From contig DAHUYQ010000028.1 in assembly GCA_027315115.1 (NCBI GenBank), positions 62,001 through 126,000 on the forward strand: a stretch of 64,000 bases of DNA, written 5' to 3'. This document shows positions 8,348 through 14,197 of this stretch, in pieces (the first letter of the stretch is position 1; the number at the start of each line of letters is the position of its first letter). The notes under the pieces were generated by a model. That model saw only the letters and a program-made list of their open reading frames with translations, did no database searches and had not been told where the DNA came from. The DNA is from Solirubrobacterales bacterium. GTDB lineage: Bacteria; Actinomycetota; Thermoleophilia; Solirubrobacterales; Solirubrobacteraceae. The position numbers and the translations under genes were made by a program.

Positions 8348-10093
8348 ATGACCGTGGACTCGGCGACCAGGGCCGTCTTGGATCTTGCGCAGGGAGTACT
8401 CTCGGAGCTCGAGCTCGATGTCGTGCTCGACCGGGTGCTGGAGTCGGCGGTGCAGCTCACCGGCGCGCGGTATGCAGCCGTGGGCGTGCTCAGCGACACC
8501 AAGGACGAGCTTGCCCGCTTCATCACCAGGGGGATCGACGCCGATGCCCGGGCGGCTATAGGGCCGCTTCCCAAGGGCCGCGGCGTGCTCGGCGCGCTGA
8601 TCGAGAATCCCCGGGCGCTGCGCCTGGCCAACGTAGGCGAACACCCCCGCTCGTTCGGGTTCCCGCACGGGCATCCGCCGATGAAGAGCTTCCTCGGCGT
8701 GCCGATCGTGATCGACGACACGCCCTTCGGCAACCTGTACCTGACCGAGAAGGACGGCGGTCGCGAGTTCACCGATGCCGACGAGCAGGCGCTGACCGTG
8801 CTGGCGGAGTTCGCTGGCGTGGCGATCGACCACGCCAGGCGCTACACGGGCGCAAGAGAACGCCGCGACGAGCTGGAGCGCACCGTCGCGGCGCTCGAGG
8901 CGACGACGCAGTTCGCGCGCGCGGTCGGCGGCGAGACCGACATAGACGTGATTCTCGAGCTGGTCGCAAAGCGCGGACGGGCGCTGGTCTCGGCGCAGAT
9001 GCTGCTGATCGAGCTCATCGAGGGCGACGCCGTGCTGGTCGCCGCCGGGGCGGGCCAGCTACCAACCGGCCTGGTCGGCCAGCGCTTCCCGCTCGCTGGC
9101 ACCGCGGCCAGTCGCGCGATGCGCACCGGACAGATCCACCGGCTCGACCACGAGCTGGAACGAGCTCGGCTCAACGAGCGCGGCGTGGGCAGGCTGGGCG
9201 CGAAGGCCGAGTGCGGCCTCGTGGTCCCGCTCATCTTCCGCGGGGAGGCCTACGGAGTCCTGCTGGCGATCAACCGGCTGGATGGCGGTCCTGCCTTCGC
9301 CGCCCAGGACGAGCGGCTGCTGGAGGCCTTTGCCACCAGCGCCGCCACAGCGGTGGCGACCGCGCGATCGGTCGAGCGCCAGCGCCAGCGCCAGCGCCTG
9401 GGCGCCGCCGAGGTCGAGCGCAAGCGCTGGGCGCGCGAGCTGCACGACGAGACCCTCCAGAGCCTCGGCGCGCTGCGGCTCGAGCTGGCGCGAGCCGAGC
9501 GCTCCGGGCAGCCGCGGGAGCTGGAGGGCGCCGTCCACCAAGCGATCGACCTGCTGGAGGAGTCGATCGCAAACCTGCGCGCGCTGATCACCGACCTGCG
9601 ACCGGCCGCTCTGGACGAGCTCGGCGCCCAGGCCGCGATCGAAGCGCTGGCGCAGCGCAGCTCCCGGCATGGCGTCGAGGTGCAGATGAACATCGACTTG
9701 GCCTTCGAGCAGGGTCGCGCGAGCACCCGCCACGTCGCGGAGCTCGAGACGGCGCTCTACCGCATCGTCCAGGAGGCGCTGACTAATGCGGTCAAGCACG
9801 GCGAAGCCAAGCAGGCCACCGTGGAGATCAGCGAGGACGAGTCGACCGTCAGCGTCAGGATCCGCGACGACGGCAAGGGCTTCGACCCGAACATCGCCAG
9901 CGGGGGATTCGGGTTGATCGGGATGCGCGAGAGGGCGCAGGTGCTGGGTGGCGAGCTCTCGATCGTGGCGGCGCCCGACCGGGGCGCCTGCGTGCAGGTG
10001 AGCATCCCCGTCATGCGCCGAGCCGAGCAGGCGATGGAGCTGGAAGGCCAGCGCGGCCGCACGGGCGAGCGCGTGGCCTCCTCCGATCGGTGA
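8348..10093 (+). CDS. DevS/DosS-like GAF-GAF sensor histidine kinase
   Basis: A 581-residue soluble kinase with GAF1 (about 18-165), GAF2 (about 175-335), a HisKA_3 dimerisation domain with RELHDETLQ (His near 366) and an HATPase_c domain (about 465-560: N-box NAVKHG, G-box DDGKGF and GGFGLIGMRER). GAF1 closely resembles mycobacterial DevS/DosS (KGRGVLG, GFPHGHPPM, FLGVPIVIDD, FGNLYLTEK). The His of HPPM, near residue 109, aligns by eye with the haem-ligand region of DosS. A redox, oxygen or NO sensor is therefore possible but inferred. No response regulator is adjacent, so its partner lies elsewhere. Hsp20 and universal stress genes follow. Confidence 0.9.
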   Translation: MTVDSATRAVLDLAQGVLSELELDVVLDRVLESAVQLTGARYAAVGVLSDTKDELARFITRGIDADARAAIGPLPKGRGVLGALIENPRALRLANVGEHPRSFGFPHGHPPMKSFLGVPIVIDDTPFGNLYLTEKDGGREFTDADEQALTVLAEFAGVAIDHARRYTGARERRDELERTVAALEATTQFARAVGGETDIDVILELVAKRGRALVSAQMLLIELIEGDAVLVAAGAGQLPTGLVGQRFPLAGTAASRAMRTGQIHRLDHELERARLNERGVGRLGAKAECGLVVPLIFRGEAYGVLLAINRLDGGPAFAAQDERLLEAFATSAATAVATARSVERQRQRQRLGAAEVERKRWARELHDETLQSLGALRLELARAERSGQPRELEGAVHQAIDLLEESIANLRALITDLRPAALDELGAQAAIEALAQRSSRHGVEVQMNIDLAFEQGRASTRHVAELETALYRIVQEALTNAVKHGEAKQATVEISEDESTVSVRIRDDGKGFDPNIASGGFGLIGMRERAQVLGGELSIVAAPDRGACVQVSIPVMRRAEQAMELEGQRGRTGERVASSDR

Positions 10094-10195
10094 ACACTAC
10101 GGAGCGCTGACCGGGCGGCTCCCCGATGCGGCTGGCGGCCCCACGGACATACCTTGACGGCTACCACCGTTCCCCCGAACTGAGGAGCACACAAG

Positions 10196-10630
10196 ATGGC
10201 TGGAGCACTTACGCGATGGGAACCATTCGCAGAGCTCGGCGAGCTGCGGAGCCGGCTCGACCGCATGCTCGGAGAACTGACCGACGGCGAGCGCACATGG
10301 ATGCCCGCGATCGACGTCGAGCGCGACAACGGCAACCTCGTGGTGCGCGCGGACGTGCCGGGGATCAAGCCCGAGGAGGTCAAGATCGAGGTCCAGGACG
10401 ACATCCTCACGGTCTCCGGCGCCCACGAGGAGAGCAAGGAGACCAAGGACAAGCACTATCTGCGCCGCGAGCGCCGCTACGGGTCCTTCAGCCGCTCGAT
10501 GGCGCTGCCCACCGGCGTCGATCCCAAGAAGATCAAGGCCAAAACGCATGACGGCATCATCGAGGTGATGATCCCGCTGCCCACAGAGGCCAAGAAGGAA
10601 ACGGTCACCATCACCCCGACAGAAGGCTAG
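10196..10630 (+). CDS. Hsp20/alpha-crystallin small heat shock protein
   Basis: This 144-residue protein starts with the short N-terminal arm WEPFAELGELRSRLDRML. The alpha-crystallin domain spans about 35-135 (PAIDVERDNGNLVVRADVPGIKPEEVKIEV, then the YLRRERRYGSFSRSMALP strand) and the C-terminus carries an IPLP-type I-x-L motif. The family are ATP-independent holdase chaperones that form oligomers. The ATG at 10196 is preceded by a GAGGAGC-type ribosome binding site. The gene sits between the DevS-like kinase and a universal stress gene, a grouping reminiscent of mycobacterial dormancy genes. Confidence 0.95.
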   Translation: MAGALTRWEPFAELGELRSRLDRMLGELTDGERTWMPAIDVERDNGNLVVRADVPGIKPEEVKIEVQDDILTVSGAHEESKETKDKHYLRRERRYGSFSRSMALPTGVDPKKIKAKTHDGIIEVMIPLPTEAKKETVTITPTEG

Positions 10631-10650
10631 AGGCGATCGCAAAGCCAGCC

Positions 10651-10675
10651 GGGGCCGGCCTTCCCGGCCGGCCCC
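10651..10675 (+). terminator. GC-rich hairpin after hsp20
   Basis: GGGGCCGGCC and GGCCGGCCCC form a perfect 10-bp stem around TTCCC, starting 21 bases after the hsp20 stop. There is no T tract, so it is either an L-shaped actinobacterial-type terminator or an mRNA-stabilising hairpin. Confidence 0.6.
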
Positions 10676-10712
10676 GCAGGGTTGACAAGAGTAGATCAGT
10701 TTGACACGGATG

Positions 10713-10726
10713 CGAACATACGTTCG
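10713..10726. promoter_or_regulatory. LexA-type SOS box
   Basis: CGAACATACGTTCG fits the Gram-positive/actinobacterial LexA consensus CGAAC-RNNY-GTTCG at every fixed position. Two TTGACA motifs lie just upstream (10682-10687 and 10701-10706). The last base of the box is the first base of the GTG start at 10726, so LexA binding here would cover the transcription or translation start of the following operon. Confidence 0.7.
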
Positions 10727-11076
10727 TGTCACGACGAGATCGGCCCCCGCCGTCCCAACAAATCCCACGACCGCGAGTCCTGACCGCCCTGGAGCAGGGC
10801 GACCTGGAATGGCTGCGCCGCCATGCCCGGCAGCTTGCGCCGATGCGGCTCACCGACGCGCTGCGCATCTGCCTGATCGTGCGTGATCGTGAGCCACAGC
10901 TCTATGAGCGGGCGGCCGTTCGCTGGCTTGGCAGGTTCGCGCTGGAGGCGCCCAACCTCACGCTGGCCGATCTGAATCTCGCCGCCGAGGCGATCGAGAC
11001 GCTGCCGCGCGACGCGCAGAACGCGATGGAGCGGCTTTCGATCCTCTGCCGGCGCTACCGCCTGCCCGGCTGCTGA
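10726..11076 (+). CDS. Hypothetical protein under a LexA-type box
   Basis: A 116-residue soluble protein that I do not recognise. It has a basic, Pro-rich N-terminus (about 1-18) and then mostly helical sequence (LTALEQGDLEWLRRHARQLAPMRLTDALRICLIV, then ALEAPNLTLADLNLAAEAIETLP), ending with a CRRYRLPGC tail that has two cysteines. The GTG start overlaps the end of the SOS box. A leaderless transcript is possible because no ribosome binding site precedes it. Its stop lies two bases before the ATG of the kinase-like fusion gene at 11079, so both genes are probably one operon and both may be DNA-damage inducible. A start further downstream cannot be excluded. Confidence 0.7.
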   Translation: MSRRDRPPPSQQIPRPRVLTALEQGDLEWLRRHARQLAPMRLTDALRICLIVRDREPQLYERAAVRWLGRFALEAPNLTLADLNLAAEAIETLPRDAQNAMERLSILCRRYRLPGC

Positions 11077-11078
11077 GC

Positions 11079-12698
11079 ATGACGCCCCGCAAGCCTTCCA
11101 GGTCCACGAGCGACGATCTCCGGGAGGCGCTCGCCGATCCCGGCTTCTACCCCGGTCCGCCAAGCGAGGTGATCGTCCGCGAGAGCCACATATCTTGGGT
11201 GTTCCTCGCCGGCGACCGCGCGTACAAGCTCAAGAAGCCCGTGACCATGCCGTTCCTCGACTACGGAACGCCGGAGCGCAGACGGGCGATGTGCCAGGAG
11301 GAGGTGCGTCTCAACCGCGCGCTGGCCGGCGAGGTCTATCTCGGGGCGCGCGCGGTCGCCAAGGGAGCGGACGGGTACGAGCTGACCACCGAGGATGACC
11401 CGCGGGCGCTCGACTATCTCGTCGAGATGCGCCGCTTCGACGAGCGCGAGACGCTGGCCCGCCGACTGCGACGCGGCGAGGTCGGCGCGGCGGAGATCGC
11501 CGCGGTGGCCGCGCGGCTCGCGAGCTTTCACGAGCACGCCCGTCATGTGCGCTTCGACGGCGTCCCCTCGCTTGCGCTGGAGCGCCGCCTGGAGGAGAAC
11601 ATCCACGAGCTGCTGGGGATGGTCGAGCAGCGGGCCGAGATGGCGCGCATCTTCGCCCTGCAGCGACTCATGCGCGCCTTCCTGCTCGCCCACGCCTCGA
11701 TGCTCGACTCGCGGGCCTTCCGGGGTCTCACGCGCGAGGTGCACGGCGACGTGCGCGCCGTCCACGTGCTGCTGGAGGAGGAGGTGCAGATCCTCGACTG
11801 CGTCGAGTTCGACCGCAAGCTGCGGGAGCTCGACGTCGGCGAGGACCTGGCCTTCCTTGTGATGGACCTTGCCGCCCACGGCGGCGAGCGCTTCGCGCGG
11901 ACGCTGCTGGAGGCATACCGCCGGGCCGGCGGAGATCCCGGCGATGACCGGCTCATGGCCTTCTATGCGGTCAGCCGTGCGCTCGTGCGCGCGAAGGTGG
12001 AGTTGGCGCAAGCCGCGCAGCAGGCTCCCAAGAGCGCGGCCCACGGTCATCACAGCGCCGCCGCACGCGAGCTGCTTGCGCTTGCCGAGCGCTTTGCGTG
12101 GCAGGCGCGCCTGCCGCTGGCGATCGTCATCTGCGGCATGCCCGCCGCCGGCAAGTCCGAGCTTGCGAAGGTCTTGGCCGCGTCCTGCGGCCTTGCTCAT
12201 CTGAGCTCGGACGTGACCCGCAAGCAGCTTGCCGGCATCGAGCCTTCACATCGCGGCGGCGAAGAGCTCTACAGCAGGGGCTTCAGTGCGCTCACCTACG
12301 CGAAGCTCGGCGCACGAGCGGCGGCACAGGCGCGTGCGGACGGTGGCGTCCTGGTCGACGCGACCTTCCGGCGGCGCACCGAGCGCGATGCCTTCGCCGA
12401 GGCGTTCGCGGACGCGACGCCGCTGCTCTACGTGGAGTGCGTGGCGCCCGCGAGCGTGCTGGCGCGACGTGCGCGCACGCGGGAGGCGCAGCCGGACAGG
12501 ATCTCGGACGCGACCGCCGAGGTCGTGCGCGCGGAGGCCGACCGCTGGGAGCCGCTGGAGGAGGTGGACGGCGAGGCGCACATCACGCTGAGGACCGACC
12601 GATCGATCGAGGCGGTCCTCGGCGACCTGCTGGCACTGCTCGACCGGCGCATGGCCCTCAGCCGCGACGCCGACGCCGGCGGTGCGGCCAATTCCTGA
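11079..12698 (+). CDS. APH-like plus P-loop kinase (AAA_33) fusion protein
   Basis: A 539-residue protein with two parts. Residues 1-330 resemble the aminoglycoside-phosphotransferase/choline-kinase fold (VIVRESHISWVFLAGDRAYKLKKPV with the ATP-site Lys, then EVHGDVRAVHVLL and ILDCVEFDRKLRELDVGEDLAFLVMDL, the catalytic HGD and Mg-binding regions). Residues 345-530 are a P-loop kinase of the AAA_33 type with Walker A GMPAAGKS and a SSDVTRKQLAG segment. This COG2187-COG0645 style fusion is widespread but its substrate is unknown, and the antibiotic-resistance labels given to such proteins are not supported. It follows the SOS-box gene by two bases. Confidence 0.88.
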   Translation: MTPRKPSRSTSDDLREALADPGFYPGPPSEVIVRESHISWVFLAGDRAYKLKKPVTMPFLDYGTPERRRAMCQEEVRLNRALAGEVYLGARAVAKGADGYELTTEDDPRALDYLVEMRRFDERETLARRLRRGEVGAAEIAAVAARLASFHEHARHVRFDGVPSLALERRLEENIHELLGMVEQRAEMARIFALQRLMRAFLLAHASMLDSRAFRGLTREVHGDVRAVHVLLEEEVQILDCVEFDRKLRELDVGEDLAFLVMDLAAHGGERFARTLLEAYRRAGGDPGDDRLMAFYAVSRALVRAKVELAQAAQQAPKSAAHGHHSAAARELLALAERFAWQARLPLAIVICGMPAAGKSELAKVLAASCGLAHLSSDVTRKQLAGIEPSHRGGEELYSRGFSALTYAKLGARAAAQARADGGVLVDATFRRRTERDAFAEAFADATPLLYVECVAPASVLARRARTREAQPDRISDATAEVVRAEADRWEPLEEVDGEAHITLRTDRSIEAVLGDLLALLDRRMALSRDADAGGAANS

Positions 12699-12757
12699 GC
12701 GGATCGAGCAGTTCTCCTCGATGAGCTTGGTCCGCTCGCCGATCAGCATGAGTGACA

Positions 12758-12839
12758 GAGAGCGTGAGTGTTCCGCAGGGAACGACCGCCAAACCGGCCA
12801 GCGGCGGGCAGCCGCGATGCCGACGGCACTCACGCTCTC
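12758..12839. other. Large inverted repeat with cloverleaf-like folding, convergent spacer
   Basis: GAGAGCGTGAGTG at 12758-12770 is exactly complementary to 12827-12839. The 56-base interior can form three smaller stems: GTTCC/GGAAC (12770-12783), CCGCC/GGCGG (12786-12807) and GCCG/CGGC (12811-12827). It lies between the convergent ends of the kinase fusion gene and the coiled-coil gene, so it may be a shared terminator or a structured RNA. Nothing else is evident in 12699-12896. Confidence 0.55.
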
Positions 12840-12896
12840 CGCACGTGGGGGCACGCCGGCCTGGCGCCTCGCCTGGCGCCTCGCCCGCCGTCCGTG

Positions 12897-13145
12897 TCAG
12901 TGCCCGACCTGCTCGCGCTGGAGCCTGCGGACCTCCTCGAGCAGCCGGCGATTCTCGATGCGCAGACGGGCCGCGTGACGGCGAGCGCTCGCGGCCTCCT
13001 GGGCGAATGCCGAGAGGACGCCTCGCAGGTACTGCAGGCGATCCAGCAGTTGCTCCCGCTCGACGCTCGCGGAAGGAGCCTCCGGAGCTGCGTGCTGGAT
13101 GGTGGGCTGGATGGTGGGCGGGATTCCCCAATCTTCGATGCTCAT
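12897..13145 (-). CDS. Small coiled-coil hypothetical protein
   Basis: An 82-residue protein from the ATG at 13145 (MSIEDWGIPP). The C-terminal two thirds form a heptad-like basic coiled coil (VEREQLLDRLQYLRGVLSAFAQEAASARRHAARLRIENRRLLEEVRRLQRE), with a leucine-zipper spacing near the end. A short repeat (TIQPTIQ) comes from a duplicated DNA segment around 13097-13120. A longer start at GTG 13199 is open but less likely. The family is unknown to me. A bZIP-like DNA-binding or scaffold role would be guesswork. It is convergent with the kinase fusion. Confidence 0.55.
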   Translation of the reverse strand: MSIEDWGIPPTIQPTIQHAAPEAPSASVEREQLLDRLQYLRGVLSAFAQEAASARRHAARLRIENRRLLEEVRRLQREQVGH

Positions 13146-13327
13146 GGCAGCCCATGCTCGCGGTCGAGACGCAGGAAGGACATCCGAACGTCTTACCAAC
13201 CCCGCTCGGTGTGGACTACTGAGCGCTCTCCCCCATCCGTAGAAATCCCGACGCGGCTCCGGTCACTTCGCCGATGCGGCGCGCTCGGCCCAGACATAAG
13301 GTGGTCTGCATCGAGAAAGGAGAGGAG

Positions 13328-14197
13328 ATGTTCGAGAACGCGCTGGTCGGTGTGGACGGCAGGCAGGGCGGCCGCGACGGGGTCGCCCTCGCCTCGGCGC
13401 TGGTGGGTCAAGGCGCGAAGATCACTCTCCTGCACGTCCACGACGGCCTGCTGCGGCCCACCCACGCCGCGACCCCTGACATGGTCGAGGAGGAGCGCCG
13501 GCAGGCAATGCGACTGCTGGAGCAGGAATCCGCCGCAGCCGGGATCTCCGCGGAGCTGATGGAGGTCGAATCGCTGCGTCCTGGCCGGGTGCTGCATGAG
13601 CGGGCCGAGGAGCAGAGCGCCGATCTGATCGTGGTCGGATCCTGCCGGCACAGCGCCCTCGGGCGCGCGATGCTCGGTAACGACACTCGCGCGGCGCTCA
13701 ACGGCGCTCCCTGCGCCGTCGCGATCGCCTCCCTCGGCTTCGGGGCGCACCCGACTCTCGCGCGAATCGGCGTCGGCTACGACGAGTCCCCGGAGAGCAA
13801 GGCGGCGCTCGACGCGGCGCGCGATCTCGGCGCCGCGAAGGGCGCGACCGTCGAGGCGCTGGAGGTGATCTCGATACCGAGCCAGACGTACATGGGATTC
13901 ATCTCACCCGCCGCGCTGGAAGACATCGACGAAGACGTCAGGCAGACCGAGGAGCGGCTCTCGCGGCAACTCGAGGGCGTTCACGGCAGAGCGGTGTGGG
14001 GACTGGCCGGCGAGGAGCTTGCCTCCTTCGGGGACGATCTGGACCTGCTCGTGGTCGGCTCCCGCGGCTTCGGGCCGCTCAAGCGGATGATGCTGGGCAG
14101 CACAGCCGACTATCTGGAGCGCCACGCCCGCTGCTGCCTGCTCGTGCTGCCCAGGGTGGCGATCGAGGATCAGCTCGCGGCGGCCGGCGGCGCCTGA
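13328..14197 (+). CDS. Tandem-domain universal stress protein
   Basis: A 289-residue protein with two UspA domains (about 1-140 and 145-285). The first begins MFENALVGVDGRQGGRDGVALASAL and ends IVVGSCRHSALGRAMLGNDTRAALNGAPCAVAI. The second has IGVGYDESPESKAALDAA and VVGSRGFGPLKRMMLGSTADYLERHARCCLLVLP, the ATP-binding G-x2-G-x9-G(S/T) type motif. The ATG at 13328 follows AAAGGAGAGGAG, a strong ribosome binding site, and is preferred to the upstream frame from 13274. Tandem Usp proteins such as mycobacterial Rv2623 act in dormancy and growth control. This gene sits near hsp20 and a DevS-like kinase. Confidence 0.93.
   Translation: MFENALVGVDGRQGGRDGVALASALVGQGAKITLLHVHDGLLRPTHAATPDMVEEERRQAMRLLEQESAAAGISAELMEVESLRPGRVLHERAEEQSADLIVVGSCRHSALGRAMLGNDTRAALNGAPCAVAIASLGFGAHPTLARIGVGYDESPESKAALDAARDLGAAKGATVEALEVISIPSQTYMGFISPAALEDIDEDVRQTEERLSRQLEGVHGRAVWGLAGEELASFGDDLDLLVVGSRGFGPLKRMMLGSTADYLERHARCCLLVLPRVAIEDQLAAAGGA

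What the first reader, a model, noticed from the sequence alone, without database searches (positions are those of the whole stretch)
10713..11076. Perfect LexA-type box on the start of a hypothetical gene
CGAACATACGTTCG ends on the first base of the GTG start of the 116-codon gene, which is followed within two bases by an APH/P-loop kinase fusion gene. That places an unnamed two-gene operon under likely SOS control, although neither product has a known DNA-repair role.
Basis: partly seen in the sequence, partly recalled or inferred. Interest (0 to 1): 0.65.

Follow-up and report, generated by a model that had tools for sequence, protein, structure and literature searches.

The report
Unnamed SOS-controlled small-protein gene family
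A small, undescribed bacterial gene starts right on a switch site for the DNA-damage (SOS) repressor LexA, and nearly all of its relatives in the same group of soil bacteria share that switch, so it looks like a new DNA-damage response gene, while the kinase gene behind it is a local neighbour.

Summary
The box CGAACATACGTTCG (10713-10726) is real and ends on the first base of the GTG of a 116-codon gene. It is a LexA operator by every computational test I could run: the genome encodes LexA and RecA, and the same box lies at lexA, imuB-like, dnaE2, uvrA and, with one mismatch, recA. Gene 1 belongs to an undescribed all-helical family found only in this actinobacterial class in my samples. An exact box sits at the start of 94 of 106 family genes examined in the order Solirubrobacterales, against 3 exact boxes elsewhere in the 861 kb fetched. 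The overlap with the start codon is a rule shared with dnaE2, imuB, dinB and a radical-SAM gene, and fits leaderless mRNAs. The "two-gene operon" is only local: kinase homologues elsewhere carry no box (0 of 15 loci), and in one same-genus genome hsp20 and the kinase are adjacent without gene 1. Binding, induction and gene-1 function remain untested; a checkpoint-type inhibitor is my best guess.

The parts
10713..10726 (.). LexA operator CGAACATACGTTCG; its last G is the first base of the GTG start codon
   Evidence: same 16-mer TGCGAACATACGTTCG in front of the imuB-like gene
10711..10719 (+). TGCGAACAT: proposed extended -10 element embedded in the operator (inferred)
   Evidence: TG before the box in 88 of 101 and T at this box position in 99 of 101 family boxes, never T in 30 lexA boxes; no canonical sigma-70 promoter found
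10726..11076 (+). gene 1: 116-codon member of an undescribed all-helical SOS gene family; probably leaderless
10650..10676 (+). 11-bp GC hairpin between hsp20 and gene 1, possible terminator or attenuator (no T run)
   Evidence: -33.6 kcal/mol, z -2.43
11079..12698 (+). gene 2: APH-like/AAA_33 kinase, 2 bp after gene 1; a local passenger of the SOS promoter, not a conserved partner
10196..10630 (+). Hsp20 gene; directly adjacent to the kinase gene in genome G154

Best explanation
Gene 1 is a LexA-repressed SOS effector gene of the Solirubrobacterales and their class. A LexA dimer on the box covers the proposed -10 element, the transcription start and the start codon at once. After DNA damage, RecA filaments trigger LexA self-cleavage and a leaderless mRNA starting at or next to the GTG is made. 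It yields a soluble six-helix protein of about 105-116 residues. The kinase gene behind it is co-transcribed only because gene 1 with its promoter lies between hsp20 and the kinase in this genome. Shown by computation: the box, its conservation, its sharing with core SOS genes, the family, and the lack of a box at kinase homologues. Inferred: LexA binding, leaderless transcription, and SOS induction. Least certain: the protein's action. I think a soluble inhibitor or adaptor that slows division or replication during repair is most likely (about 0.3).
For: Genome has one LexA with DNA-binding and S24 domains, and RecA. Exact box at lexA, imuB-like, dnaE2 and uvrA, one-mismatch box at recA. lexA of relatives: 30 of 30 loci with a box, 28 exact and 2 with one mismatch (the 30 best of 57 genomes with a match). 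Family genes: exact box in 78 of 89 (set A) and 23 of 40 (set B). The box lies in all three frames relative to the protein (41/38/22 of 101), so selection acts on DNA. 89 of 101 have an in-frame start at box +12 to +30, mostly GTG at +13 (33) or ATG at +15 (32). The 16-mer TGCGAACATRYGTTCG occurs in 59 of 61 genomes with zero control matches, and 57 of 76 sites inspected precede dnaE2, imuB, radical-SAM or dinB genes. Confident helical model, pLDDT 89. Precedent: M. tuberculosis lexA is translated from its transcription start (PMC2897130, passages).
Against: No binding or induction data. Exact boxes genome-wide are hardly more than the control count (8 against 6). 7 of 89 set-A and 12 of 40 set-B genes have no box within one mismatch, mostly in other orders or in partial matches. 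No canonical promoter at the site, and a conserved TTGAC-like element sits too close to the box for sigma-70 spacing. The family is patchy: 81 of 232 genomes of the order.
Confidence: 0.82

Rival explanations
1. Gene 1 and the APH/kinase gene form a functional two-gene SOS module.
For: 2-bp spacing and one promoter in the window; a hairpin lies between hsp20 and gene 1.
Against: The kinase was found near none of the other 89 family loci compared; 15 kinase-homologue loci have no box and no gene 1; hsp20 and the kinase are adjacent without gene 1 in G154.
Confidence: 0.1
2. The family is a selfish or mobile LexA-controlled cassette (phage-, toxin- or defence-like) rather than a host checkpoint or repair gene.
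For: Patchy, up to 4 copies per genome, window copy lying between two genes adjacent elsewhere, no shared kinase or stress-gene neighbourhood; HNH, XRE and DUF222-HNH genes share the same operator.
Against: No relative in viral contigs, plasmids or phages, no PADLOC or PHROGs hit below E 0.01; genera cluster on the tree (47 changes against 77.8 when shuffled); mostly one copy per genome.
Confidence: 0.15
3. The box is a chance match or is kept for coding reasons, not for LexA.
For: 8 exact boxes in the genome against 6 for the control pattern.
Against: 101 exact boxes at family starts against 3 elsewhere in the same 861 kb, and the box lies in all three frames.
Confidence: 0.02
4. The protein is an accessory factor of the ImuB/DnaE2 translesion machinery rather than a division or replication brake.
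For: It shares the exact operator and start architecture with imuB, dnaE2 and dinB.
Against: Not linked to those genes in the window genome (different contigs) and absent from many genomes of the order; no sequence relation found.
Confidence: 0.25

Closest known systems
Actinobacterial LexA/SOS regulon (Streptomyces venezuelae, PMC9380542; M. tuberculosis)
   Same: Operator core CGAAC-N4-GTTCG; targets lexA, recA, dnaE2, Pol IV and a radical-SAM gene
   Different: In S. venezuelae Table 1 most boxes lie 20-200 bp upstream of the start, with one hypothetical gene at -14; here the operator runs into the start codon in most effector genes, and a family without a database name is included
SOS-induced cell-division inhibitors (SulA, YneA, SosA, ChiZ, DivS)
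   Same: Small, clade-specific, LexA-controlled proteins; a division inhibitor is listed in the Gram-positive core SOS regulon (PMC7739468, passages)
   Different: No Pfam hit to any such domain; all-helical model; target unknown
Leaderless lexA of M. tuberculosis (PMC2897130)
   Same: Translation start coincides with transcription start
   Different: Single gene there; here a repeated architecture inferred from sequence alone
Bifunctional APH/ATP-binding proteins, Rv2004c type (gene 2)
   Same: AAA_33 domain and full-length similarity to proteins so annotated; stress-gene neighbourhood
   Different: Here it lies behind an SOS promoter; homologues checked have no LexA box

Membership tests
Actinobacterial LexA (SOS) regulon | Operator matching CGAACRNNYGTTCG at the gene start | tested here: met
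Actinobacterial LexA (SOS) regulon | Genome encodes LexA (DNA-binding and S24 domains) and RecA | tested here: met
Actinobacterial LexA (SOS) regulon | Same operator at undisputed SOS genes of the genome | tested here: met
   lexA, imuB-like, dnaE2, uvrA exact; recA with one mismatch
Actinobacterial LexA (SOS) regulon | Operator conserved at homologues | tested here: met
   exact in 94 of 106 in the order, 7 of 23 in other orders of the class
Actinobacterial LexA (SOS) regulon | LexA binding and induction by DNA damage | not testable with these tools
   needs DNA-binding assay, ChIP or RNA measurement
SOS cell-division inhibitors (SulA/YneA/ChiZ type) | LexA control | tested here: met
   (by sequence)
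SOS cell-division inhibitors (SulA/YneA/ChiZ type) | SulA or LysM domain | tested here: not met
   no such Pfam family among hits of the window protein or of 40 members
SOS cell-division inhibitors (SulA/YneA/ChiZ type) | Blocks division on expression | not testable with these tools
   needs an expression experiment
Bifunctional APH/ATP-binding protein (gene 2) | C-terminal AAA_33 kinase domain | tested here: met
Bifunctional APH/ATP-binding protein (gene 2) | N-terminal APH domain by profile | tested here: inconclusive
   no Pfam APH hit, but similarity across both halves to proteins annotated so

The most novel reading that the evidence does not exclude
The family is the clade-specific SOS checkpoint effector of the Thermoleophilia: a soluble helical protein of a new type that halts division or replication. 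Its operators are built into the start codons of leaderless genes, so one LexA dimer covers promoter, transcription start and start codon across the class's damage-response effector genes.
Probability: 0.25. Interest if true: 0.75.

Novelty: new member of a known kind. Interest (0 to 1): 0.6.

Why it matters
It adds an undescribed, class-restricted gene family to the SOS response of a poorly studied actinobacterial class, with a sequence signature (TGCGAACATRYGTTCG running into GTG or ATG) whose control pattern had no match in 61 genomes and which lists the damage effectors. Whether these bacteria have their own division checkpoint, and how LexA controls leaderless genes, becomes directly testable. 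It also shows how a solitary SOS gene lying between two genes can bring a stress kinase under a new promoter.

Tried and rejected
Chance match: rejected. Coding constraint at the N terminus: rejected, box lies in all three frames. Conserved gene 1-kinase pair: rejected. Phage, plasmid or defence origin: nothing found. Fold relatives: Foldseek against PDB and the viral library gave nothing with E below 1, and the second look at PDB gave at best Z 6.2, within noise for helical bundles; this absence does not exclude a known fold. A weak HEAT_2 hit in 4 of 40 members (best E 0.00048) was not built on. A canonical sigma-70 promoter at the site was not found. The conserved TTGAC-like element about 12 bp before the box stays unexplained. 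An all-against-all comparison of neighbouring open frames gave clusters of mostly overlapping or same-genus frames, its output was cut, and I drew no conclusion from it. Papers: searches showed no study of LexA in Solirubrobacterales or Thermoleophilia among the rows listed; subscription papers are not held.

Full report
OBSERVATION. The box CGAACATACGTTCG lies at 10713-10726 and its last G is the first base of GTG 10726-10728, the start of a 116-codon gene ending at 11076; the kinase gene begins at 11079. No other site in the window matches even with one mismatch. The genome (3.33 Mb, 65 contigs, 90.65% complete) has 8 exact boxes against 6 for the reversed control, so the count alone proves little.

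THE BOX IS A LEXA OPERATOR IN THIS GENOME. There is one LexA with LexA_DNA_bind and S24 domains and a RecA. Of the 8 exact boxes, five lie just upstream of or at the starts of lexA, an imuB-like Y-polymerase gene, dnaE2, uvrA and gene 1; recA has a one-mismatch box about 55 bp upstream. One box lies between dnaB (about 113 bp away) and a divergent gene without Pfam hit (about 15 bp away), so its target is unclear. The remaining two lie inside long open frames and may be chance. The box of gene 1 is identical over 16 bases to that of the imuB-like gene. In related genomes 30 of 30 lexA loci examined (the best 30 of 57 genomes with a match) carry the box, 28 exactly and 2 with one mismatch. For recA only 3 of 30 are exact and 13 more have one mismatch.

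GENE 1 IS A FAMILY WITH ITS OWN LEXA BOX. Homologues occur in 81 of 232 genomes of the order; named relatives are Conexibacter and Solirubrobacterales MAGs. A profile finds 112 of 399 genomes of the class and 3 of 296 drawn from the phylum, those 3 all in the same order (how many of the 296 lie outside the class is not listed). Pfam, NCBIfam, PHROGs, PADLOC and PDB sequences give no convincing hit, and viral contigs, plasmids and phages give none. I examined 90 of the 104 places and 40 further places. After dropping one locus that held only a fragment, an exact box lies within 150 bp upstream of (to 15 bp inside) the domain start in 78 of 89 genes of the first set (4 more with one mismatch) and 23 of 40 of the second (5 more). 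Sorted by kinship, the counts are 94 of 106 exact within the order, and 7 of 23 exact plus 5 with one mismatch in other orders of the class. Elsewhere in the same 861,268 bases there are 3 exact boxes. The box stands in all three frames relative to the protein (41, 38, 22 of 101), so it is kept as DNA.

START-CODON ARCHITECTURE. In 89 of 101 genes with an exact box, an in-frame start codon lies 12-30 bases after the first box base, most often GTG at +13 (33, the window's arrangement) or ATG at +15 (32). TG precedes the box in 88 of 101 and the seventh box base, free in the LexA consensus, is T in 99 of 101. In 30 lexA boxes that base is never T. I infer an extended -10 element TG-C-GAACAT inside the operator and a transcription start at the start codon; this is inference (the extended -10 motif is recalled), and the scan found no canonical promoter. 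The 16-mer TGCGAACATRYGTTCG occurs in 59 of 61 genomes, with no control match in any. Of 76 distinct sites inspected, 22 precede dnaE2, 16 imuB, 11 a radical-SAM gene, 8 dinB and 2 this family; 17 were not assigned by the script, among them one family gene (L246, recognised). The site sample was chosen to avoid family genes already seen. The radical-SAM label rests on the visible cysteine cluster and recall, since Pfam saw only an intein in the seed sequence. M. tuberculosis lexA is a published leaderless SOS gene (PMC2897130, passages), and S. venezuelae has one hypothetical gene with a box at -14 (PMC9380542, section read).

GENE 2 IS A LOCAL NEIGHBOUR. It has an AAA_33 kinase domain; its APH half has no Pfam hit, but relatives are annotated as bifunctional aminoglycoside phosphotransferase/ATP-binding proteins. 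A search of the window genome and 60 relatives found homologues in 15 genomes, the window genome included. None of the 15 loci from other genomes has a box with fewer than two mismatches, and none has gene 1. Near the other 89 family loci compared the kinase was not found. In G154, of the same genus, the Hsp20 stop is 24 bases from the start of the kinase match, without gene 1; no gene-1 match was found in G154. In the window an 11-bp GC hairpin follows hsp20. The simplest reading is that gene 1 with its SOS promoter came to lie between hsp20 and the kinase. The window copy is not close to the same-genus copies, but its place on the tree is not resolved. Rv2004c, a kinase of this type in M. 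tuberculosis, is recalled; that it is a DosR regulon gene is in the title of PMC5483032, and I did not compare sequences.

WHAT GENE 1 DOES. The AlphaFold2 model (21 sequences) is confident (pLDDT 89, pTM 0.80), six helices, with the first 13 or so residues loose. No informative structural relative was found. [quoted passage not shown] In this clade all slots but the last are filled by recognisable genes, so by elimination a checkpoint-type inhibitor is my first guess (about 0.3), a translesion accessory factor close behind (0.25), a selfish or defence cassette less likely (0.15).

VERDICT. Observation confirmed; SOS control of gene 1 strongly supported by sequence; the operon reading is only local; novelty lies in the unnamed family and in the general fusion of LexA operator and start codon in this clade.

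Noticed in passing
window 8348-14197: GAF sensor histidine kinase, Hsp20, APH-like/AAA_33 kinase and universal stress protein genes together resemble a DosR-type stress cluster (resemblance recalled).
   Followed up: partly
L308 772-2136; L272 911-1645; L275 850-1635; L284 1105-1929: HNH endonuclease genes (one DUF222-HNH, two with helix-turn-helix domains) start on the same LexA operator, recalling the LexA-linked 13E12 repeats of mycobacteria (recalled).
   Followed up: partly
L293 857-1102, L296, L298, L258: Small Cro/C1-type regulators start on the same LexA operator in several genomes, a possible second-tier SOS regulator.
   Followed up: no
L256, L260, L281, L289, L292, L297: The SOS-controlled radical-SAM gene appears interrupted at its cysteine cluster by an intein-like insert in several genomes (Pfam intein and LAGLIDADG hits checked in L256 only).
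   Followed up: partly
L011 227-2517: A one-mismatch LexA box abuts the start of a DUF1156/N6_N4 methylase-like open frame.
   Followed up: no
L013 2445-2458: An exact LexA-type box lies between dnaB and a divergent 373-aa gene without Pfam hit; which gene it controls is open.
   Followed up: partly
L018 2507-2852: A near-match LexA box precedes a helix-turn-helix open frame whose HNH-like continuation lies in another frame, perhaps a broken HTH-HNH gene.
   Followed up: partly
window 10682-10687 and 10701-10706: Two TTGACA hexamers lie before the box; a TTGAC-like element about 12 bp upstream recurs in family promoters at a spacing that fits no usual promoter.
   Followed up: partly
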